DNA from: a virus
Strand: one strand, 5' to 3'
DNA length: 21,941 nucleotides
IMG/VR virus record: IMGVR_UViG_3300032285_001251
Location: 1 to 21,941 of that record
Position numbers and translations under genes: made by a program. This document shows, piece by piece, positions 7,210-21,941 of the stretch (position 1 is its first letter; each line of letters opens with the position of its first letter). The notes below the pieces were generated by a model. It was not told the origin of the DNA, did no database searches, and worked only from the letters and a program-made list of their open reading frames with translations.

Positions 7210-7233
7210 AACTTTAAACTAGTGATTGTACTA

Positions 7234-7241
7234 GATAAATA
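7234..7241 (+). promoter_or_regulatory. T4-type late promoter box for ahpC
   Basis: GATAAATA matches the TATAAATA late box at 7 of 8 positions. It lies 25 nt before the ahpC ATG, leaving a normal leader that contains AAGGAG. Confidence 0.5.
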
Positions 7242-7266
7242 TTTCACTACACACAAGGAGATATTT

Positions 7267-7851
7267 ATGAAAACAATCGGAGACAAACTAACAAAATTTG
7301 GTGTTACTGGTATTAAACCCGGCGCACTAACCCCTGACAACAATTTTGAAACTATCACAGAAAGTAGTTTTGGTGGCAAATGGAAAGTAATTGTATTTTA
7401 TCCAAAAGACTTTACATTTGTGTGCCCAACTGAAATTGTTGCATATGACAAGCTAAACAAAAACTTTGCAGACCGTGACGCTGTGTTATTAATCGGTAGC
7501 ACAGATAACGAATTCTGTAAGCTAGCATGGAAGAATGCACACGAAGGCTTGAAAGCAACTACATCGTGGTTCTTTGCAGACACACTGCGCCGTCAAAAAC
7601 CTGTATTGGGTGAAGATTGGGAAATCTCAAACATCGGTGGATTAGCTGATCAATTAGGTATTTTCTATGCACCAGCAGGCGCAGCATTACGTGCAACATT
7701 CATTGTTGACCCACAAAATGTTATTCAGCATGTTACAGTAAATAACTTAGATGTTGGCCGTAATCCAGATGAAACATTGCGGGTATTGGATGCATTGCAA
7801 ACAGGTGAGTTATGTCCCTGCAATCGTACTATAGGTGGTGAGACACTATGA
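7267..7851 (+). CDS. ahpC: AhpC-type peroxiredoxin
   Basis: This 194-aa 2-Cys peroxiredoxin reduces hydrogen peroxide and organic peroxides. The peroxidatic Cys53 lies in YPKDFTFVCPTE. The C terminus has GELCPCN, with Cys183 and Cys185 as candidate resolving cysteines, as in the mycobacterial AhpC branch (which has CxC) that is recycled by AhpD rather than AhpF. A conserved Arg lies in LRATFIVDP. ATG 7267 is chosen because AAGGAG lies 6 nt upstream; an in-frame GTG-like start at 7222 has no ribosome site. The ATGA overlap with ahpD indicates a coupled pair. Confidence 0.92.
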   Translation: MKTIGDKLTKFGVTGIKPGALTPDNNFETITESSFGGKWKVIVFYPKDFTFVCPTEIVAYDKLNKNFADRDAVLLIGSTDNEFCKLAWKNAHEGLKATTSWFFADTLRRQKPVLGEDWEISNIGGLADQLGIFYAPAGAALRATFIVDPQNVIQHVTVNNLDVGRNPDETLRVLDALQTGELCPCNRTIGGETL

Positions 7852-12463: not shown

Positions 12464-13165
12464 ATGACATACAAGCAAAAACTCCTAACCACTCAAGTAT
12501 ACATTCACATTCTGTTCATCGCGGGATTGATAATGTTCCCATGGTATATAACTATACCCACAATTATACTGAGTCAAGTTGTATATTCGGGTCTTTGCGG
12601 AACAGTATTATTTCATAGAGTAGCAACACACAAAAACGCTATTAACCCGATTGCTGAAAAGGTATTAATTTTACTATCTTGGTTGGGGGCAACCTCATCC
12701 GCCCTTGCTTGGGCAGGCGCGCATAGAAAACATCATAGATATAGCGATACTGATAAAGACCCGCATAGCCCTATTAAAATGGGTAAATTTAGAGCGTATT
12801 GGCAACTATCAAAAAACGACACTGATATAATTCGTTATGTTCCTGATTTGTTAAGAAAACCATGGTACTTGTTTCAACATAAACATTATTTTGTTGTATT
12901 GTATGTGATACATATATTGGGATTTGTTTTACTCCCGTTACAAGTATACTGGATGTTGTTAATTGTCCCAGGATTCTTAATGTGGTTTACTGGAAGCATG
13001 GTTAATTGTTTATGCCACAGTGATGCTGGTCCAATCAACAATGCTATATTGAGTGTGTTATTAGTGGGCGAAGGAATGCACCTTAATCACCATGAAGAAC
13101 CTGCTAACCCTGACTTCAGAGATGGAACTGATTGGGGATACAAACTCTATACCTTAGTAAAATGA
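12464..13165 (+). CDS. membrane fatty-acid desaturase
   Basis: This 233-aa integral membrane protein has the three histidine boxes of acyl desaturases: H51-RVAT-H56, H87-RK-H90-H91 and H206-LN-H209-H210, which bind the di-iron centre. Hydrophobic pairs at about 10-50 and 140-180 are likely membrane segments. It would introduce a double bond (delta-9-type fold) into host membrane lipids, perhaps adjusting fluidity during infection. Typical bacterial homologues are longer. Its stop overlaps the next start (ATGA), linking it to two oxygenase-like genes. Confidence 0.85.
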   Translation: MTYKQKLLTTQVYIHILFIAGLIMFPWYITIPTIILSQVVYSGLCGTVLFHRVATHKNAINPIAEKVLILLSWLGATSSALAWAGAHRKHHRYSDTDKDPHSPIKMGKFRAYWQLSKNDTDIIRYVPDLLRKPWYLFQHKHYFVVLYVIHILGFVLLPLQVYWMLLIVPGFLMWFTGSMVNCLCHSDAGPINNAILSVLLVGEGMHLNHHEEPANPDFRDGTDWGYKLYTLVK

Positions 13166-13875
13166 AACTAAAACATCGCCTTCCCAGTTATTCTATAATT
13201 GACCACTTATCATTGACTCAAACTCAACTAGAAAGTTTAGTACAATGTGTTAATGAGTTGGAATACGAATTCAAATCTGTATTAGAAGTTAACAAAGAGT
13301 TATGTGGGATACACCACGACCTTGCTAGCAAAGTGTATGAAAACTTCTTTCAAATAAGTTTGACTGACAGCACCGTAGAAAATAAACCAATCACACTAGA
13401 AGAATGTGAAATGGTTGATGAAACACTACATAGTAACAGCATAGTAAAAAATTATAGAAAACGTATTGAATTAACTACGAGTGAATCTAGTCCAATGAAT
13501 GAGTCTACTTATACAGCCAAAACTAAAGTTTATGATAAGTACGCAGAAATTTTTGACAGTATCTTTTCAAAAATCAAAGGTGTATCTACCCGCGCACGAT
13601 TAGTTAAGTTAGGTTCTGGTAGCAATGTCACCCCACACATAGACTATGATCCTAGTTATGCGGTGCGTATAATCATACCTATCATTGCTGATAATGAATG
13701 TCTTAATGTATTCTGGGTCAAGAACAATATAGAAACTGTTGCATTTACTCCCGGTAAAGCATACTTTTTAAATACTGGATACAAACATGCAGTTATGAAT
13801 TTTAGTAAGCATGATAGATATACATTGCTTATATCTGTTAACGGTACACAAGACATAGACCATCTACTAGTTTAA
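13162..13875 (+). CDS. 2OG-Fe(II) oxygenase-like protein (second of three)
   Basis: This 237-aa protein has a helical N-terminal half and a C-terminal double-stranded beta-helix with H159-I-D161, H209 (GYKHAVMN) and R219 (DRYTLLISV). The spacing and N-x-S pattern resemble aspartyl beta-hydroxylase-type oxygenases. ATG 13162 is chosen because it overlaps the desaturase stop as ATGA; the alternative TTG upstream is within the desaturase. The substrate is unknown. Confidence 0.65.
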   Translation: MKLKHRLPSYSIIDHLSLTQTQLESLVQCVNELEYEFKSVLEVNKELCGIHHDLASKVYENFFQISLTDSTVENKPITLEECEMVDETLHSNSIVKNYRKRIELTTSESSPMNESTYTAKTKVYDKYAEIFDSIFSKIKGVSTRARLVKLGSGSNVTPHIDYDPSYAVRIIIPIIADNECLNVFWVKNNIETVAFTPGKAYFLNTGYKHAVMNFSKHDRYTLLISVNGTQDIDHLLV

Positions 13876-15985: not shown

Positions 15986-16053
15986 ACACACATAAACAGC
16001 AAAAAACACTATGTTATTTGCAGTTATTTTAAACCAGGACTAAATAAAAGACT

Positions 16054-16188
16054 ATGATGAATAAAACTTGTTACATGCCGAAACATACGGGGCTATGGTC
16101 TATAGAGGCCTTAGCGACCTTTGCGGCATCATATCCTACAAGTATTCGCGGCAATGATAACCAAAGAGGTGCCCGGGGAACGGATTAA
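16054..16188 (+). CDS. possible 44-aa ORF, or structured RNA on the same transcript
   Basis: An ORF beginning MMNKTCYMPKHTGLW and ending GARGTD lies between a sigma-70 promoter and a strong terminator. A weak late-type box, ACTAAATA, lies 7 nt upstream, and there is no well-placed ribosome site. The DNA is GC-rich for this genome and can pair extensively, for example ATGCCG (16075-16080) with CGGCAT (16124-16129), so it may instead be a small non-coding RNA. The two readings are not exclusive. Confidence 0.35.
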   Translation: MMNKTCYMPKHTGLWSIEALATFAASYPTSIRGNDNQRGARGTD

Positions 16189-16216
16189 TAAGTTACATCA
16201 TAACAAATTTATTCAA

Positions 16217-16255
16217 CCCCTGGGATACGAAAGTACTCAGGGGTTTTTGTTTTTG
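16217..16255 (+). terminator. intrinsic terminator
   Basis: CCCCTG (16217-16222) pairs with CAGGGG (16238-16243). An inner TAC/GTA pair and a GAAA loop are followed by a T-rich tract (TTTTTGTTTTT). This ends the first RNA unit before the next promoter at 16283. Confidence 0.85.
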
Positions 16256-16282: not shown

Positions 16283-16311
16283 TTGACAGTAAATGGATAC
16301 TCTGTTATAGT
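16283..16311 (+). promoter_or_regulatory. sigma-70-type promoter of the main tRNA operon
   Basis: TTGACA (16283-16288), a 17-nt spacer and TATAGT (16306-16311). It is the only strong promoter seen before the first tRNA and should drive the structured RNA at 16318 and the tRNA array behind it. Confidence 0.85.
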
Positions 16312-16317
16312 ATGGGT

Positions 16318-16520
16318 TAGTTAAGAAGATAGTGTGTTATAGGAAACGAGATCCTAGTCTGCACTTTAAACATGGACGAATGGGCGGCCTAGAGGATGAA
16401 GTCTCTTTTGTGAGATGAAAAATTCTAGCGTATTAAAGCATTCTCTAGCCGAAAGGTGACAAGTGGGTACGCACCCATGTAGTGTGCTTTAATACACGCA
16501 TTAGAAATAGTGCGTTAATA
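16318..16520 (+). ncRNA. structured leader RNA of the tRNA operon (novel candidate)
   Basis: About 200 nt without a convincing ORF lie between the promoter and the first tRNA. Clear helices are TAGGA/TCCTA near 16340-16356, CTAGA/TCTAG with inner TCTC/GAGA, a 10-bp stem TATTAAAGCA (16432-16441)/TGCTTTAATA (16485-16494) enclosing TGGGT/ACCCA and a CC-GAAA-GG hairpin, and ACGCATTA-GAAA-TAGTGCGT (16496-16515). Two GAAA tetraloops and compensating wobble pairs argue for a folded RNA. T4 carries unexplained stable RNAs (species 1 and 2) in its tRNA cluster, and this may be an analogue. No known family is recognised. Confidence 0.6.
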
Positions 16521-16526
16521 ATTTAT

Positions 16527-16600
16527 TGGGGCATTGTGTAATGGTAGCACAACAGACTTTGACTCTGTTAGCCTAGGTTCAATCCCTAGTGCCCCTGCCA
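16527..16600 (+). tRNA. tRNA-Gln (anticodon TTG)
   Basis: Cloverleaf with acceptor GGGGCA/TGCCCC and an unpaired U1-U72, like the weak first pair of bacterial tRNA-Gln. The anticodon loop is CTTTGAC, the T arm CTAGG-TTCAATC-CCTAG, discriminator G, and CCA is encoded. Confidence 0.92.
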
Positions 16601-16605
16601 GTTTT

Positions 16606-16661
16606 AGGATACTTTCAGCAAAATTAAAAACTTTTCGTATGGTGAAAAAAAAGCGTATCCT
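16606..16661 (+). ncRNA. hairpin element between tRNA-Gln and tRNA-Arg
   Basis: AGGATAC (16606-16612) pairs perfectly with GTATCCT (16655-16661) around an A-rich 42-nt interior. It fills almost the whole 71-nt gap between two tRNA genes. It may guide RNase processing or be a small stable RNA. Confidence 0.45.
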
Positions 16662-16671
16662 GTTTTATTAT

Positions 16672-16748
16672 GCGACCGTAACTCAGTTGGATAGAGTACT
16701 AGGCTACGAACTTAGGAGTCGGGAGTTCGAATCTCTCCGGTCGCACCA
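16672..16748 (+). tRNA. tRNA-Arg (anticodon ACG)
   Basis: Acceptor GCGACCG/CGGTCGC, D arm CTCAGTTGGATAGAG, anticodon loop CTACGAA, T arm with TTCGAAT, discriminator A, encoded CCA. A34 is likely inosine after host TadA editing. Confidence 0.93.
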
Positions 16749-16752
16749 ATTT

Positions 16753-16826
16753 GCTCTTTTAGTATAAAGGTATTATAATACATTGGTAATGTATAGACAC
16801 TGGATCGTTACCAGTAAGGAGCACCA
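16753..16826 (+). tRNA. tRNA-Thr (anticodon GGT)
   Basis: Acceptor GCTCTTT/AAGGAGC, anticodon stem ATACA/TGTAT with loop TTGGTAA, T arm ACTGG-ATCGTTA-CCAGT, encoded CCA. The D stem is weak. Its CCA bases also form the start of the outer stem of the next structured RNA. Confidence 0.88.
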
Positions 16827-16928
16827 TATAAAAACACATTCTGAAACCTGTAGAGTCGTACAGCGGAATGCATAGTCAGGGTATGAGCTGGTATCTGGGA
16901 GATACGACCTGAATGTGTTTCTATATGG
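16824..16928 (+). ncRNA. structured RNA cassette 1 between tRNA-Thr and tRNA-Met
   Basis: An outer stem pairs 16824-16830 with 16922-16928 (7 bp) and 16832-16841 with 16911-16920 (10 bp) around one A-C mismatch. The 69-nt core holds CTGTA/TACAG and GTATC/GATAC hairpins. Its outer stem is nearly identical to that of the next element, while the core differs completely. No known family is recognised. Confidence 0.6.
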
Positions 16929-16933
16929 TAATT

Positions 16934-17010
16934 ATATAAAAACACATTGTCCTAGGCTGTGACCTAGTCCATCAGAAGTCCTTAGAGACAGAAGCAATGT
17001 GTTTCTATAT
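16934..17010 (+). ncRNA. structured RNA cassette 2, twin of cassette 1
   Basis: ATATA (16934-16938) pairs with 17006-17010, and AAACACATTG (16940-16949) pairs with 16995-17004, with the same A-C mismatch as in cassette 1. The 45-nt core contains the hairpin CTAGG-CTGTGA-CCTAG. The stem ends exactly at the first base of tRNA-Met, suggesting that processing of the tRNA and of this RNA are linked. Confidence 0.6.
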
Positions 17011-17086
17011 GGTAATATAGCATAGTGGCTAATGCAACTGCTTCATACGCAGTCTATCGTTGGTTCGAGTCCAACTATTACCACCA
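17011..17086 (+). tRNA. tRNA-Met (anticodon CAT)
   Basis: Acceptor GGTAATA/TATTACC, anticodon ACTGC-TTCATAC-GCAGT, T arm GTTGG-TTCGAGT-CCAAC, encoded CCA. The paired 1-72 end argues for an elongator (or lysidine-modified Ile2) rather than an initiator tRNA. Confidence 0.92.
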
Positions 17087-17087
17087 A

Positions 17088-17249
17088 TTAAAGATTATTG
17101 ATAAAGCGTAATGCTTTGTTGATATTAGTAAAATATTGTATCTGATACTCACAAAAGTATCTGTCATACACAATCATACAACAAACACCATCAATCAATG
17201 ATAGGTGAAAGTTTAAGCCTCCAGGAGTAACATTCTTGTAGGTTTTCAT
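17088..17249 (-). CDS. 53-aa small protein inside the tRNA array (minus strand)
   Basis: A minus-strand ORF begins MKTYKNVTPGGLNFHLSLID and ends ALRFINNL. It exactly fills the 176-nt gap between tRNA-Met and tRNA-Ile and opposes them. The box AATAAATA lies 5 nt before its ATG with no Shine-Dalgarno, the same arrangement as four larger genes and the 18259 gene here. That makes a real late gene plausible despite its size. It has two adjacent Cys (GVCCMIVYDRYFCEYQ) and no known motif. Confidence 0.5.
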   Translation of the reverse strand: MKTYKNVTPGGLNFHLSLIDGVCCMIVYDRYFCEYQIQYFTNINKALRFINNL

Positions 17250-17254
17250 AATAG

Positions 17255-17262
17255 TATTTATT
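17255..17262 (-). promoter_or_regulatory. T4-type late promoter box, 5 nt from ATG (minus strand)
   Basis: AATAAATA on the minus strand, matching 7 of 8 positions, abuts the first base of tRNA-Ile on the other strand and precedes ATG 17249 by CTATT. Confidence 0.45.
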
Positions 17263-17337
17263 GCCCAGTAGACCGAATGGTGAGGTACCGTCTTGATAAG
17301 GCGGCTGTAGTTGGATCGTAACCAACACTGGGTACCA
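17263..17337 (+). tRNA. tRNA-Ile (anticodon GAT)
   Basis: Acceptor GCCCAGT/ACTGGGT, anticodon CCGTC-TTGATAA-GGCGG, T arm GTTGG-ATCGTAA-CCAAC, encoded CCA. Confidence 0.92.
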
Positions 17338-17346
17338 ATTTTTTAT

Positions 17347-17420
17347 GGGCTGCTAGTATAATGGGATTACCCTAGCCTTGCACGTTAGTTATCGGGGTTC
17401 GATTCCCCGGCGGTCCACCA
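17347..17420 (+). tRNA. tRNA-Ala (anticodon TGC)
   Basis: Acceptor GGGCTGC/GCGGTCC with two G-U pairs, anticodon CTAGC-CTTGCAC-GTTAG, T arm CGGGG-TTCGATT-CCCCG, encoded CCA. Confidence 0.93.
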
Positions 17421-17426
17421 AGTTTA

Positions 17427-17485
17427 TAGGGAGTCACGCAGATGTCCTGCGTTACTTAAACGACCAAGCTGAGCCGGCGTCCCTA
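17427..17485 (+). ncRNA. 59-nt structured RNA between tRNA-Ala and tRNA-Pro
   Basis: TAGGGA (17427-17432) pairs with TCCCTA (17480-17485) like a short acceptor stem, enclosing the perfect hairpin ACGCAG-ATGTC-CTGCGT and a GC-rich segment (CGACCAAGCTGAGCCGGCG). It is too short for a tRNA and has no CCA. Confidence 0.5.
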
Positions 17486-17497
17486 AGAAAGTTTTAT

Positions 17498-17576
17498 CTG
17501 TGTGTGAGAAAGTCTGGTTTAATCTACTCGCCTTGGAAGTGAGAAATCGCAGGTTCAAATCCTGCCGCACAGACCA
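17498..17576 (+). tRNA. tRNA-Pro (anticodon TGG)
   Basis: Acceptor CTGTGTG/CGCACAG (C1-G72, typical of bacterial Pro), anticodon CTCGC-CTTGGAA-GTGAG, T arm GCAGG-TTCAAAT-CCTGC, encoded CCA. The D loop is long and its stem short. Confidence 0.9.
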
Positions 17577-17582
17577 GTTACT

Positions 17583-17677
17583 GGGGAATACGCTTCAAGG
17601 TGAAGCACCTGTATTCTGTATTAGAATATGTACTGCAAAATCAAACTTGATTGGTTCGATTCCAATATTCCCCGCCA
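17583..17677 (+). tRNA. tRNA-like gene with aberrant anticodon region
   Basis: Acceptor GGGGAAT/ATTCCCC, D arm GCTT-CAAGGTG-AAGC, T arm ATTGG-TTCGATT-CCAAT, discriminator G and encoded CCA are all good. The region between D and T arms is 43 nt and does not give a standard anticodon arm. The best stem, TATTC/GAATA, encloses TGTATTA, which lacks U33 (reading TAT). A shifted arm gives loop CTGTATT (GTA, Tyr) but a mismatched stem. It may be a type II tRNA, an interrupted tRNA or a tRNA-derived RNA. Confidence 0.6.
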
Positions 17678-17683
17678 AATTAT

Positions 17684-17760
17684 GGTGACCATAGTGTAAA
17701 GGTTTAGCACCTCACTCTGTGAAAGTGATAGAATGGGATCGTTCCCCATTGGTTACCCCA
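17684..17760 (+). tRNA. tRNA-His (anticodon GTG)
   Basis: G-1 opposite C73 (the His identity pair), acceptor GTGACCA/TGGTTAC, anticodon TCACT-CTGTGAA-AGTGA, T arm ATGGG-ATCGTTC-CCCAT, encoded CCA. Confidence 0.93.
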
Positions 17761-17765
17761 AACAT

Positions 17766-17842
17766 GCCCTGGTGGTGAAATTGGTAAACACAGCGGTCTA
17801 AGAAGCCGTAAGCTGCGAGTTCGAGTCTCGCCCAGGGCACCA
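17766..17842 (+). tRNA. tRNA-Leu (anticodon AAG) with short variable loop
   Basis: Acceptor GCCCTGG/CCAGGGC and a Leu-like D arm (GGTGAAATTGGTAAACAC). The anticodon loop CTAAGAA reads AAG, with stem GCGGT/GCCGT. T arm GCGAG-TTCGAGT-CTCGC, encoded CCA. The variable region is only about 5 nt, whereas bacterial Leu tRNAs have a long arm. The isotype is assigned from the anticodon. Confidence 0.75.
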
Positions 17843-17853
17843 AACAAATTTAC

Positions 17854-17932
17854 GCCCCGCTGGACAAAGGTGGTAAAGTCGCTTCTCTCAAAAGGAAGAG
17901 TGTTCTCGGTTCAAATCCGAGGCGGGGTACCA
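17854..17932 (+). tRNA. tRNA-Leu (anticodon CAA) with short variable loop
   Basis: Acceptor GCCCCGC/GCGGGGT, anticodon CTTCT-CTCAAAA-GGAAG, T arm CTCGG-TTCAAAT-CCGAG, encoded CCA. As in the previous tRNA-Leu, the long variable arm is missing (about 6 nt). Confidence 0.82.
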
Positions 17933-17938
17933 AGTTAC

Positions 17939-17989
17939 GGTCGGCATTGTAGAGTGCTATGCGATACAGGCTCTATGGGTTGACCACCA
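17939..17989 (+). ncRNA. 51-nt mini-tRNA-like RNA ending in ACCA
   Basis: GGTCGGC (17939-17945) pairs over 7 bp with GTTGACC (17979-17985), followed by A and CCA exactly as in a tRNA acceptor end. Inside is a single hairpin, TGTAGAG/CTCTATG, with a 16-nt loop. D and T arms are absent. It could be a remnant of a tRNA or a functional tRNA mimic. Confidence 0.5.
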
Positions 17990-17991
17990 AA

Positions 17992-18137
17992 TTTCAAGCT
18001 AGACGATAAGATTGAGTCCCAAATAATCTAGCACAGTTCGGGTTGGCTGTGTGACACCGCACACGATTATAAGGTAGTATAAACTCTCTTATACGAGACA
18101 ACCCAATGAGTCCGAAAGGATAGTTGGACGCTTGAAA
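17992..18137 (+). ncRNA. 146-nt pseudoknotted structured RNA before tRNA-Phe
   Basis: The closing stem is TTTCAAGC (17992-17999)/GCTTGAAA (18130-18137). Inside are CACAG/CTGTG (18032-18036/18047-18051), GTATAA/TTATAC (18077-18082/18089-18094) and TCC-GAAA-GGA (18111-18120). The loop of the CACAG hairpin contains GGGTTG (18040-18045), complementary to CAACCC (18099-18104), giving a pseudoknot. No known family is recognised. Confidence 0.6.
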
Positions 18138-18145
18138 ACCTATTT

Positions 18146-18222
18146 GCCATAGTAGCTCCAATCGGTAGAGCAGCGGACTGAAAATTCGTGTGTTGCTGGT
18201 TCAAATCCAGCCTATGGCACCA
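18146..18222 (+). tRNA. tRNA-Phe (anticodon GAA)
   Basis: Acceptor GCCATAG/CTATGGC, D stem GCTC/GAGC, anticodon GCGGA-CTGAAAA-TTCGT, T arm GCTGG-TTCAAAT-CCAGC, encoded CCA. Confidence 0.95.
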
Positions 18223-19659: not shown

Positions 19660-20513
19660 TGAGTTATACACATTATCATGTAACCTTGTCTAATGCGGCT
19701 GATTCATATACTTTTACATATGAATTAGCCGCACATAGACCGGCTCAGGAATGGGCTAGACAAATGACTAATGTAAATGTAAACTCATTGAGGCAAGGAT
19801 TTGATCCATGGCTAGGAATACATAATCTACCCGAAGATAAAATCAATAGATTGAATCAACTAATTGATTTGTTAAATGAATGGATTCCTAATAAGATACT
19901 TGATAAGTGGAATTTTAGAAATCCACATACAAGTTTGAACAAGTTGCACATTCATTTTCCTGAACAAGAAAAAACTGAAACTGATCCAAGTAGATTAAAT
20001 CAGTTGTCAGAGTACAATGATATAATTCATGCATTGGAGTACTTAGTAAGAAAAATCTCATATAAGGACACGTTATGTTTGATAGTGATTCCGGAATCAG
20101 ACTGTCAAGCAGTGTTGAATATTGATGATTATCAATACTTTAAGGCTAGCAGAGAATTTGGTGAATTGTGTTTACATTACCCACATGTAGGTAGGCATCC
20201 TTTAGAGTTATTAAAATCAAGAGATATAGTTTGTCCTGTTGATCAAATAGTAACACAAAAGTTAATAACACCATATCACTCATTGCGGTTTTCAAAAGAT
20301 CCTTATAGTGAACAACAATATAATAATGCATTTGATAAATTTTATAAGATTAGTAAGATAAATCAAATAGTTGATAGGAATGATCCTAAGTTAGCGTTTG
20401 GATATATTCCTATAGGAAAGTTAATATCTGTAAATGATAGTTTAGTAACTAAAGAAGCAATTACAGATATTGTTAGGAACACAAATAAAATTTTAAGTTG
20501 GAAAATTGCTTGA
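19659..20513 (+). CDS. unknown protein coupled to the HNH gene
   Basis: This 284-aa protein starts MSYTHYHVTLSNAADSYTF and shares one base with the HNH stop. It is rich in charged and aromatic residues, with a likely coiled or helical part (about 50-90), and ends ILSWKIA. A CPVDQIVTQKL segment and many His/Tyr residues stand out, but no catalytic motif is certain. Its TGA stop lies inside the -35 box of the next promoter. It could be a partner of the HNH enzyme, by position only. Confidence 0.55.
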   Translation: MSYTHYHVTLSNAADSYTFTYELAAHRPAQEWARQMTNVNVNSLRQGFDPWLGIHNLPEDKINRLNQLIDLLNEWIPNKILDKWNFRNPHTSLNKLHIHFPEQEKTETDPSRLNQLSEYNDIIHALEYLVRKISYKDTLCLIVIPESDCQAVLNIDDYQYFKASREFGELCLHYPHVGRHPLELLKSRDIVCPVDQIVTQKLITPYHSLRFSKDPYSEQQYNNAFDKFYKISKINQIVDRNDPKLAFGYIPIGKLISVNDSLVTKEAITDIVRNTNKILSWKIA

Positions 20514-20538
20514 CAATAAATTTGTTCTAGTGTATAAT
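20510..20538 (+). promoter_or_regulatory. sigma-70-type promoter of tRNA-Thr(TGT)/tRNA-Asn
   Basis: TTGACA (20510-20515), 17-nt spacer, TATAAT (20533-20538): a perfect consensus promoter. The upstream stop codon lies in the -35 box. Confidence 0.9.
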
Positions 20539-20553
20539 TCATATTAAATAAAC

Positions 20554-20579
20554 ATAGTAGTGAGTAACATCACTACTAT
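20554..20579 (+). other. 5' hairpin of the tRNA-Thr(TGT) transcript
   Basis: ATAGTAGTGA (20554-20563) pairs perfectly with TCACTACTAT (20570-20579) around GTAACA, shortly after the expected start site. It may stabilise the transcript or direct RNase cleavage before the tRNA at 20588. Confidence 0.5.
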
Positions 20580-20587
20580 TAAAAATT

Positions 20588-20662
20588 GCCCGATTGGCTC
20601 AGGGGTAGAGCAACCGCCTTGTAAGCGGTAGGTCGTCTGTTCGAATCAGACATTGGGCACCA
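20588..20662 (+). tRNA. tRNA-Thr (anticodon TGT)
   Basis: Acceptor GCCCGAT/ATTGGGC, anticodon ACCGC-CTTGTAA-GCGGT, T arm GTCTG-TTCGAAT-CAGAC, encoded CCA. Confidence 0.95.
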
Positions 20663-20669
20663 ATTTTAT

Positions 20670-20745
20670 TCCCCAGTAGCACAGCGGTAGTTGCAGTTGA
20701 CTGTTAATCAACGTGTCGGTGGTTCGATCCCATCCTGGGGAGCCA
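20670..20745 (+). tRNA. tRNA-Asn (anticodon GTT)
   Basis: Acceptor TCCCCAG/CTGGGGA, anticodon GTTGA-CTGTTAA-TCAAC, T arm GGTGG-TTCGATC-CCATC, discriminator G, encoded CCA. Confidence 0.95.
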
Positions 20746-20766
20746 AATTTTTTAATGGAGACATTT

Positions 20767-20961
20767 ATGTTAGTTAGTAATTCAGCAGGTTATAAAGTAT
20801 TTTGTGAAACTAAACCCGTAGATGTCCTTCCAGGTCATTATCATATTCGTGTTTATTCAACATATGAACATTCTAAAGAACCTGATTATCAACAAACAAA
20901 ACTTGATATGGTTCTATCACAAACTGAATTAGAACAATTCAGGCAATCACTAACTGCCTAA
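20767..20961 (+). CDS. 64-aa small protein, function unknown
   Basis: A small ORF begins MLVSNSAGYKVFCETKPVDV and ends QFRQSLTA. ATG 20767 has GGAG 6 nt upstream; an in-frame ATG at 20755 would add four residues. It follows tRNA-Asn by 21 nt and so may be read from the same sigma-70 promoter, an unusual protein gene in an RNA unit. A mixed beta/helix pattern (GHYHIRVYST, then SQTELEQFRQSL) suggests a folded domain. Confidence 0.65.
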   Translation: MLVSNSAGYKVFCETKPVDVLPGHYHIRVYSTYEHSKEPDYQQTKLDMVLSQTELEQFRQSLTA

Positions 20962-20964
20962 CAC

Positions 20965-20993
20965 TTGACAATAAATCACTTAGGTGATATACT
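20965..20993 (+). promoter_or_regulatory. sigma-70-type promoter of tRNA-Arg(TCT)
   Basis: TTGACA (20965-20970), 17-nt spacer beginning ATAAAT, TATACT (20988-20993). It starts 3 nt after the upstream stop codon. Confidence 0.85.
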
Positions 20994-21012
20994 GTCAGCA
21001 AGTGAAAAATAT

Positions 21013-21087
21013 CCGGCGTTAGTATAATGGATAATACAGCGGTCTTCTACACCGTGAATGTGGGTTCGATTCCTGCACGCCGGACCA
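21013..21087 (+). tRNA. tRNA-Arg (anticodon TCT)
   Basis: Acceptor CCGGCGT/ACGCCGG, anticodon GCGGT-CTTCTAC-ACCGT, T arm GTGGG-TTCGATT-CCTGC with two G-U pairs, encoded CCA. AGA is a favoured codon in AT-rich phages. Confidence 0.92.
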
Positions 21088-21095
21088 AAGATTAG

Positions 21096-21119
21096 TGTTG
21101 TTGTAAAAATACAACAACA
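21096..21119 (+). terminator. hairpin after tRNA-Arg(TCT)
   Basis: TGTTGTTGTA (21096-21105) pairs perfectly with TACAACAACA (21110-21119) around AAAA. It separates tRNA-Arg from the next promoter. The lack of a U-tract makes it a processing or stability hairpin as likely as a terminator. Confidence 0.45.
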
Positions 21120-21125
21120 AAGTAT

Positions 21126-21154
21126 TTGACAATAAATGGTGCTTATGATACAAT
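21126..21154 (+). promoter_or_regulatory. sigma-70-type promoter of the tRNA-like RNA unit
   Basis: TTGACA (21126-21131), 17-nt spacer beginning ATAAAT, TACAAT (21149-21154). Confidence 0.8.
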
Positions 21155-21226
21155 CATAGCATGAGTTGAGAAAAGTGATCGTACTACTCAACAAGGTTCA
21201 TTAAAAAGCTGTCAGACTGTTTCTAA

Positions 21227-21334
21227 GTGTATTATAGTATAATGGCTAGTACGCAAGGGCCCACACAATGAACTCATAGTAATTGTATGGTGGGAATCGC
21301 CAGTGAAAAGATGGTTCGAATCCATCTAGTACAC
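21227..21334 (+). tRNA. tRNA-like RNA with expanded anticodon region and no CCA
   Basis: Acceptor TGTATTA (21228-21234)/TAGTACA, extended by a G/C pair at 21227/21334, T8-A9, a D arm GTA-TAATGGCTAG-TAC and a good T arm GATGG-TTCGAAT-CCATC are present. About 56 nt lie between D and T arms, folding as CCCAC/GTGGG plus ACAAT/ATTGT with a 12-nt loop rather than a normal anticodon arm. CCA is not encoded. It may be an interrupted tRNA or a tRNA mimic. Confidence 0.55.
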
Positions 21335-21345
21335 TTAAAAATAGT

Positions 21346-21374
21346 TTGACAATAAATGGATGTTGTGTTATACT
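21346..21374 (+). promoter_or_regulatory. sigma-70-type promoter of the large 3' RNA
   Basis: TTGACA (21346-21351), 17-nt spacer beginning ATAAAT, TATACT (21369-21374). Expected start is near 21381. Confidence 0.85.
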
Positions 21375-21380
21375 ACATTC

Positions 21381-21915
21381 ATTAGTTAAGAGGTTGTTTC
21401 AAAAAGCGAGACACGCTAGCAATAGCAAAAAGTCAAGCAGGAAACATTAAATGAGCAGGTCTCAGCCAAATGTTCTTTAAAATTTAAGAATCATATATCC
21501 CTGTTTAAGTTACAGGGCTCTATATGTAAATGTATTAACAGGGTTACCCACTCCGTTAGGCTGAACGTGATTGTCTTTGGATTAATTTTCGGGTCACTAG
21601 TAGGCATGAAGCAGGGATCTAGAGGATAGGTTGAGGCGACACCAAAGCCAACAGTACTGAAGGGATAGGCATCTCCCGGTTAGCGACGGATTAAACAGTG
21701 GGCTGTAATAAGAGTAAGTCAATTGTAAGCAAGTGGTGTTGCTAATTGCGGTTCTTCCCAGTTAATATGTTTTCATATAGTGATAGTATGCATAAAGCGT
21801 GGGTTCTCAACGAACCTCTGTGCAGAGAACATCTGTCCCGACAGCTCCTGGCGCGGAGTGGACACAGTCGGGGAATAACAGGTCCACCAGGAGGTTCACG
21901 CTTTATGTATATTAT
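21381..21915 (+). ncRNA. large pseudoknotted structured RNA (about 535 nt), novel or GOLLD-like candidate
   Basis: More than 500 nt without a plausible gene follow a strong promoter. The 5' domain has TCAGCC (21462-21467)/GGCTGA (21559-21564) enclosing CATATA-CCCTG/CAGGG-TATATG (21492-21526). The middle has CTTTGG (21575-21580)/CCAAAG (21642-21647). The 3' domain closes with a 13-bp stem, 21789-21801/21897-21909. Inside are GTTCTC/GAGAAC, CTCCTG/CAGGAG and GTGGAC/GTCCAC, with CCCGAC (21837-21842) pairing into the loop at GTCGGG (21867-21872) as a pseudoknot. Size, tRNA neighbours and phage setting recall GOLLD RNA, but I cannot confirm homology. Confidence 0.65.
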
Positions 21916-21941
21916 GCTCGGTTCGTCTATCGGTCAGGACG
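21916..21941 (+). tRNA. 5' end of a tRNA, probably tRNA-Glu (cut by window edge)
   Basis: GCTCGGT fits an acceptor strand, followed by TC and the D arm GTC-TATCGGTCAG-GAC, which is the pattern of bacterial tRNA-Glu. The anticodon lies beyond the window, so the isotype is inferred. It directly follows the large RNA. Confidence 0.55.

What the first reader, a model, noticed from the sequence alone, without database searches (positions are those of the whole stretch)
16318..18137. tRNA array interleaved with a family of structured non-tRNA RNAs
Most sizeable gaps between tRNAs in the first operon fold into closed, stem-bounded RNAs: the leader at 16318-16520, the hairpin at 16606-16661, the twins at 16824-17010, 17427-17485, the mini-tRNA at 17939-17989 and the pseudoknotted RNA at 17992-18137. 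They carry GAAA tetraloops, G-U pairs and outer stems that touch tRNA ends. T4 has two unexplained stable RNAs in its tRNA cluster; this window suggests a much larger set of such 'passenger' RNAs, released by the same processing enzymes.
Basis: partly seen in the sequence, partly recalled or inferred. Interest (0 to 1): 0.85.

Follow-up and report, generated by a model that had tools for sequence, protein, structure and literature searches.

The report
Phage tRNA array with tRNA-mimic RNAs
Between the tRNA genes of a large bacterial virus sit several undescribed structured RNAs, one of which recurs in many viruses and displays a copy of a tRNA's anticodon arm, so it may be a decoy for host enzymes that attack tRNAs.

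Summary
A scan with the neighbouring HNH gene found 80 related jumbo-phage-like contigs with tRNA arrays. Three listed RNAs are real, covarying families absent from Rfam: the leader (core 16328-16432, 45 loci), the pseudoknotted RNA (17992-18137, 29 loci) and the hairpin (16606-16662, 83 copies). The twins are two copies of a repeated stem scaffold with unconserved inserts; the 'mini-tRNA' is a conserved hairpin; 17427-17485 is unsupported.

The hairpin is the surprise. Its family has a freely replaced but always paired closing stem, a fixed CAGCAA motif and an insert. In short copies the insert is an anticodon arm: 23 of 44 distinct copies carry a loop identical to a real tRNA anticodon loop (shuffled mean 0.25), mostly Lys-UUU. 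In long copies it is a tRNA body without anticodon, like the module of bacterial Y RNA. The same RNA lies in tRNA regions of isolated phages (GAP32, BF, XaC1, Astolliot, BUCT-ZZ01). The scaffold resembles Dictyostelium Class I RNA.

Best mechanism: decoys, or tethers, for enzymes acting on tRNAs. Expression and function are untested. T4 rnaC/rnaD are not matched.

The parts
16283..16311 (+). promoter-like site TTGACA (16283-16288), 17 nt, TATAGT (16306-16311) ahead of the leader
   Evidence: read from the sequence; identical apart from one base in L003
16328..16432 (+). leader RNA core, covarying family with an H-type pseudoknot
   Evidence: (E=1e-29, 45 copies)
16430..16495 (+). leader 3' part: 11-bp stem GTATTAAAGCA/TGCTTTAATAC with variable interior
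   Evidence: conserved stem with different interior in L012, L029, L035
16496..16515 (+). 8-bp hairpin before tRNA-Gln, compensatory changes against L003
16606..16662 (+). CAGCAA cassette (hairpin of the finding): 7-bp closing stem, CAGCAA motif, anticodon-arm-like hairpin TTTTC-GTATGGT-GAAAA at 16632-16648
   Evidence: E=3.7e-8
16824..16928 (+). twin 1: scaffold CCATATA..AAACACATT / AATGTGTTT..TATATGG with unconserved insert
16934..17010 (+). twin 2: second copy of the same scaffold, different insert
17088..17249 (-). antisense 53-codon gene in the Met-Ile gap (not an RNA of the set)
   Evidence: open in 9 relatives, changes mostly at third codon positions
17581..17675 (+). degenerate tRNA-like RNA (7-bp acceptor, T arm, CCA; anticodon loop without U33), absent in L003
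17938..17989 (+). 'mini-tRNA': hairpin ending in ACCACCA; relatives have a plain 16-bp hairpin
17992..18137 (+). pseudoknotted RNA, covarying single-copy family of the array
   Evidence: (E=5e-46, 29 copies)

Best explanation
The region is a tRNA operon of a jumbo-type phage that also encodes several structured RNAs, made together with the tRNAs from one promoter and probably freed by the cuts that release the tRNAs. Shown here: the leader, 17992-18137 and the CAGCAA cassette are covarying RNA families on the tRNA strand. Shown for the cassette family as a whole: a variable closing stem plus CAGCAA carries parts of a tRNA, either an anticodon arm (most often Lys-UUU; also Thr-UGU, Arg-UCU, Tyr-GUA, Asn-GUU, Ser-GCU) or a tRNA body without anticodon. 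Inferred: the cassettes work as tRNA mimics that occupy enzymes acting on tRNAs, most simply host anticodon nucleases and other tRNA-cutting defences, so that working tRNAs survive. The leader, 17992-18137 and the twins may do related work, but nothing here says what.
For: Covariation of all three families. Anticodon-arm statistics: 39 of 44 short cassettes have a 5-bp/7-nt hairpin (shuffled mean 7.4, max 14), 34 with U33 (2.0, max 7), 23 with a loop identical to a tRNA anticodon loop (0.25, max 2). Out-of-sample: a pattern without the closing stem found 36 viral contigs; 23 of 27 distinct cassettes have a 7-bp or longer Watson-Crick closing stem against 2.6% at random places, and 33 stretches hold tRNAs; a scrambled loop gave one hit. 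Same RNA in tRNA regions of seven isolated phages. tRNA-body modules. Known defences cut the mimicked tRNAs: PrrC and PARIS AriB tRNA-Lys, Cas13a U-rich anticodons, PtuAB tRNA-Tyr.
Against: No expression, binding or phenotype data. The window's own copy has a loop (GTATGGT) identical to no tRNA loop. Thr and Arg loops have no single obvious nuclease here. Many copies are orthologous, so the independent count is smaller: four exact loops among about 20 different ones in that set. No decoy of this form is described in the papers searched. Most gaps (371 of 440) hold none of these families.
Confidence: 0.45

Rival explanations
1. Protein tether or chaperone RNA: closing stem plus CAGCAA is the binding site of a host or phage protein, and the variable module brings in a partner (a tRNA enzyme or an RNase), as bacterial Y RNA links Rsr to PNPase.
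For: Constant scaffold with exchangeable modules; the tRNA-body module matches YrlA at 29-44 bits with the same arm order; YrlA joins Rsr and PNPase (PMC8394870); the similar Dictyostelium Class I RNAs bind Rnp1A.
Against: YrlA scores stay below the curated 69 bits, and YrlA's base stem has no CAGCAA. No protein partner is known.
Confidence: 0.22
2. Spacer or processing signals: the elements keep neighbouring pre-tRNAs apart or stop exonucleases in a long polycistronic transcript; resemblance to tRNA arms is a relic of decayed tRNA copies.
For: Fixed register to tRNA ends; twins, 17427-17485 and the tRNA-like RNA come and go between relatives; degenerate tRNAs occur in the same array.
Against: Relics would not keep exact anticodon loops while both stems are replaced with compensation; most inter-tRNA gaps need no such element; cassettes also occur away from a tRNA end.
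Confidence: 0.2
3. Mimics aimed at tRNA-modifying enzymes or at the ribosome: the arms compete for anticodon-loop modification (for example t6A37) or enter the ribosomal A site and slow host translation.
For: Six of seven canonical loops seen (CTTTTAA, CTTTTAC, CTTGTAA, CTTCTAA, CTGTTAA, CTGCTAA; not CTGTAAA) end in U36-A37, the type that receives t6A37 in real tRNAs (the t6A link is established knowledge, the pattern was noticed after the fact).
Against: The Tyr-type loop does not fit; no binding or modification data.
Confidence: 0.13

Closest known systems
Dictyostelium Class I RNA (Rfam RF01414)
   Same: about 60 nt, AT-rich; stem joining the ends with free but paired sequence; CAGCAA motif beside the 5' strand; CUG(U) end; variable interior
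   Different: social amoebas, DUSE promoter, Rnp1A partner; phage copies score 29-33 bits against the cut-off 41.5 and carry tRNA parts as interior
YrlA, bacterial Y RNA (Rfam RF02553)
   Same: modular RNA whose effector is a tRNA body with T arm first, closed acceptor and D arm
   Different: no CAGCAA scaffold; single host gene near rsr, not repeated in phage tRNA arrays; phage modules stay below its cut-off
GOLLD and ROOL RNAs
   Same: structured RNAs of phages near tRNA islands (PMC12286853)
   Different: several hundred nt; no Rfam match to them here
T4 rnaC and rnaD (species 1 and 2 RNA)
   Same: stable RNAs of 139 and 119 nt in a phage tRNA cluster
   Different: at the end of the cluster; not matched by models R1-R3
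Phage tRNAs that evade anticodon nucleases (T5, SP15, T6)
   Same: same genomic setting and plausibly the same pressure; intact phage tRNA-Tyr was suggested as decoy or supplement (PMC13096335)
   Different: those are whole working tRNAs; these are isolated tRNA parts on a scaffold

Membership tests
Dictyostelium Class I RNA (RF01414) | short stem joining 5' and 3' ends, pairing kept while sequence changes | tested here: met
   98% of closing-stem cells paired with changes on both sides; 23 of 27 in the out-of-sample set
Dictyostelium Class I RNA (RF01414) | 11-nt motif CCUUACAGCAA next to the 5' strand | tested here: inconclusive
   CAGCAA at the right place, but it was part of the search; at least 8 of 11 letters in 54 of 71 distinct copies
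Dictyostelium Class I RNA (RF01414) | score above Rfam's curated cut-off (41.5 bits) | tested here: not met
   29.3-33.1 bits, full-length matches
Dictyostelium Class I RNA (RF01414) | dictyostelid origin with DUSE promoter | tested here: not met
   phage tRNA arrays; described as unique to dictyostelids (PMC7919456)
YrlA / bacterial Y RNA (RF02553) | tRNA-like module with T arm, closed acceptor, D arm | tested here: met
   only in long cassettes of relatives and isolates, not in the window
YrlA / bacterial Y RNA (RF02553) | score above the curated cut-off (69 bits) | tested here: not met
   28.9-43.7 bits
YrlA / bacterial Y RNA (RF02553) | base stem binds Rsr/Ro60 | not testable with these tools
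   needs a binding assay
GOLLD / ROOL | match to the Rfam models | tested here: not met
T4 rnaC / rnaD type | common descent with T4 species 1 and 2 RNA | tested here: not met
   no match of R1-R3 in T4; weak test, as R1 had no positive control in that search
RNA decoy of anticodon nucleases | displays the target anticodon loop | tested here: met
   exact Lys, Thr, Arg, Tyr loops in 23 of 44 copies; not met by the window's own copy
RNA decoy of anticodon nucleases | binds or is cut by such an enzyme and spares tRNAs | not testable with these tools
   needs biochemistry or infection assays

The most novel reading that the evidence does not exclude
Large phages of many hosts carry a so far undescribed class of modular RNA that displays isolated tRNA parts, above all the Lys-UUU anticodon arm, on a freely replaceable scaffold inside tRNA arrays, as an RNA-based counter-defence against tRNA-cutting immunity; the same scaffold may underlie the Class I RNAs of social amoebas.
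Probability: 0.35. Interest if true: 0.95.

Novelty: new variant of a known kind. Interest (0 to 1): 0.85.

Why it matters
It has long been unclear why phages keep long tRNA arrays and what the stable RNAs between the tRNAs do. Here are three covarying families that can be searched for in any phage, and one of them mimics the tRNA part that host defence nucleases cut. Because that RNA also sits in culturable phages (GAP32, BF, Astolliot, BUCT-ZZ01), the idea can be tested directly.

Tried and rejected
Reading the near-identity between the window and L003 as constraint: dropped, because linkers are identical too, so exchange of array segments is likely; covariation in more distant relatives was used instead. 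An RNA gene at 15995-16255: it is a 44-codon gene with a terminator. A hammerhead-like core in the leader and in 17992-18137: the letters do not fit and Rfam has no match. Finding relatives with the PP-loop protein or an RNA 20-mer: only the one known contig. Blast of the gaps against isolated phages gave only tRNA-like or borderline hits; following up the weak ones led to the isolates. The Asn-loop pattern scan gave one distinct cassette, the rest real tRNAs or chance. A stem test that allowed G-U was replaced by a Watson-Crick test after its null proved high, 12%. The inserts of the twins, the third cassette class and 17427-17485 gave no reading. Only 69 of 440 inter-tRNA gaps of 40-260 nt hold a named family, so most gaps stay unexplained.
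Full report
Setting. The window is a 21,941-base IMG/VR virus fragment. Fifteen tRNA genes lie on the + strand, eleven of them at 16527-18222. Among isolated phages the neighbouring HNH protein is closest to one of the 440-kb Salicola phage SCTP-2, 42% identical. The nearest relative, contig 3300032246_000935 (L003), is syntenic, with coding DNA mostly 82-90% identical, but lacks the twins, 17427-17485, the tRNA-like RNA at 17581-17675 and one tRNA-Leu, and has a gene inserted in the leader. Some array segments are up to 100% identical including linkers, which points to exchange as well as constraint. A protein-alignment scan with the HNH gene gave 80 related loci, many with arrays of more than 20 tRNAs.

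Which gaps hold real RNAs. 17992-18137: a 17-sequence alignment with a hand-made structure including a pseudoknot gives 25 of 40 pairs with changes on both sides and a covariation score of 0.386 against 0.187 in 500 shuffles, none reaching it; slid structures reach 0.11 at most. A covariance model (R1) finds 29 copies, one per array, all on the tRNA strand, E 5e-46 to 6e-13; the aligned set scores 0.476 against 0.186. Leader 16328-16432: 16 of 22 pairs with double changes, 0.497 against 0.172, including the crossing helix; model R3 finds 45 copies, once per array except L057 with two, and their set scores 0.598 against 0.158. Neither has an Rfam match.

The twins and the rest. 25 copies of the scaffold CCATAT..AAACAYATT [insert] ARTGTGTTT..ATATGG were found. 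The stem is mostly conserved and covaries more than shuffles (18 double changes against 7.8, maximum 15), but the inserts share no general family. 17427-17485 is unsupported. The 'mini-tRNA' is a hairpin family. The Met-Ile gap holds an antisense gene.

The hairpin at 16606-16662. A search for AGGAT..CAGCAA closed by ATCCT, which does not use the inner hairpin, gave 60 distinct cassettes. In the 44 short ones the inner hairpin is an anticodon arm: 39 have a 5-bp stem and a 7-nt loop (shuffled inserts mean 7.4, max 14), 34 have U33 (2.0, max 7) and 23 have a loop letter-for-letter equal to a tRNA anticodon loop of the set (0.25, max 2): Lys CTTTTAA 12, Thr CTTGTAA 6, Arg CTTCTAA 3, Tyr CTGTAAA 2. 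Many copies are orthologs, so the independent number is smaller. Both stems covary while motif and loop stay. Model R2 finds 83 copies in 1.2 Mb, all on the + strand; the window copy has E=3.7e-8. Of 43 copies with an adjacent upstream tRNA, 37 start exactly 5 nt after it and the rest 4 or 6 nt. The window copy has loop GTATGGT, with U33 but unlike any tRNA loop, so it is a divergent member.

Long cassettes. Several hold a tRNA body in permuted order: T arm, acceptor closed by a short loop, D arm, joined to the scaffold where the anticodon stem would be. Most hits of that scan were simply neighbouring tRNAs; the permuted ones are those with short loops and no CCA. Shuffled controls gave 0, 0 and 1 hits. 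Rfam's YrlA model matches these modules at 29-44 bits, below its cut-off of 69, and the alignment shows the same arm order. YrlA is known to mimic tRNA and to join Rsr with PNPase (PMC8394870).

Isolated phages and an out-of-sample test. Weak blast hits led to copies in tRNA regions of GAP32, BF, XaC1, Astolliot, Kaldavass and BUCT-ZZ01 (four each) and CBB (five at E up to 0.05), mostly without annotation in the records; none in T4, T5, RaK2, SCTP-2 or Atu_ph07. A pattern of CAGCA plus the Lys arm hit 36 viral contigs. Although the closing stem was not in the pattern, 23 of 27 distinct cassettes have a Watson-Crick stem of at least 7 bp, with many different sequences, almost all starting 10 nt before CAGCA; random places give 2.6%. 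33 of the 36 stretches contain tRNAs and 22 cassettes lie within 25-30 nt of one. A loop of equal composition in scrambled order gave one hit, without a tRNA. In 257 Gb of prokaryote genomes a sister pattern gave three hits without tRNAs.

Scaffold. The only Rfam family that resembles it is Dictyostelium Class I RNA: 29.3 bits over the full model for the window copy, cut-off 41.5. Class I RNAs are about 60 nt, with an end-joining stem of variable sequence, an 11-nt motif next to it, a CUGU end and a variable interior, and bind Rnp1A (PMC7919456). 55 of 71 distinct cassettes end in CUGU. Common descent or convergence is open.

Mechanism. Shown: covarying families, register to tRNAs, exact anticodon loops in the family, tRNA-body modules. 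Inferred: transcription with the tRNAs and release by tRNA processing. Proposed, about 45%: decoys for tRNA-targeting enzymes. PrrC and PARIS AriB cut tRNA-Lys (PMC10264068, PMC11455837), Cas13a cuts U-rich anticodons (PMC11042736), and retron PtuAB depletes tRNA-Tyr (PMC11555353), which fits the Lys and Tyr loops. A tether role like that of Y RNA is the main rival. I found no report of such RNAs in the open-access library; subscription papers could not be searched.

Novelty. The leader and 17992-18137 are new RNA families of a known kind, structured RNAs of phage tRNA arrays. The cassette combines a Class I-like scaffold with Y-RNA-like and anticodon-arm modules, which makes it at least a new variant of tRNA-mimicking RNA; if the decoy function holds, it would be a new kind of counter-defence.

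Noticed in passing
window 16054-16188 (+): Conserved 44-codon gene MMNKTCYMPKHTGLWSIEALATFAASYPTSIRGNDNQRGARGTD with its own promoter-like site and terminator, just upstream of the array; homologs in about 25 relatives.
   Followed up: partly
window 21340-21941: Probable large structured RNA with its own promoter-like site, cut off by the end of the window; its ends are about 100% identical in L003 while some 230 nt of the middle are replaced. No Rfam match.
   Followed up: partly
window 21216-21335: tRNA-like RNA with a good T arm and acceptor but a very long anticodon arm, absent in L003.
   Followed up: no
window 20510-21400: Each RNA unit of the second part starts with the same promoter-like module TTGACAATAAAT..; units behind it are exchanged between relatives.
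   Followed up: no
L052:2085-2367: Match to tmRNA_permuted (RF04321, 97 bits) inside a phage tRNA array.
   Followed up: no
L057:16779-16977: Group I intron (RF00028) in the tRNA array region.
   Followed up: no
L013:11587-11755, L026:16790-16953, L030:17351-17520: Third insert class of the CAGCAA cassette, 164-170 nt, found near the end of arrays; structure and identity unknown.
   Followed up: no
L015:14130-14299 (also L017, L018): A twin scaffold whose insert contains a T arm followed by a D arm, so the second scaffold may also carry tRNA parts.
   Followed up: no
window 7222-7851, 12464-13165, 13132-13875: Metabolic-type genes in the phage: AhpC/TSA, fatty acid desaturase and aspartyl/asparaginyl beta-hydroxylase matches.
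   Followed up: no
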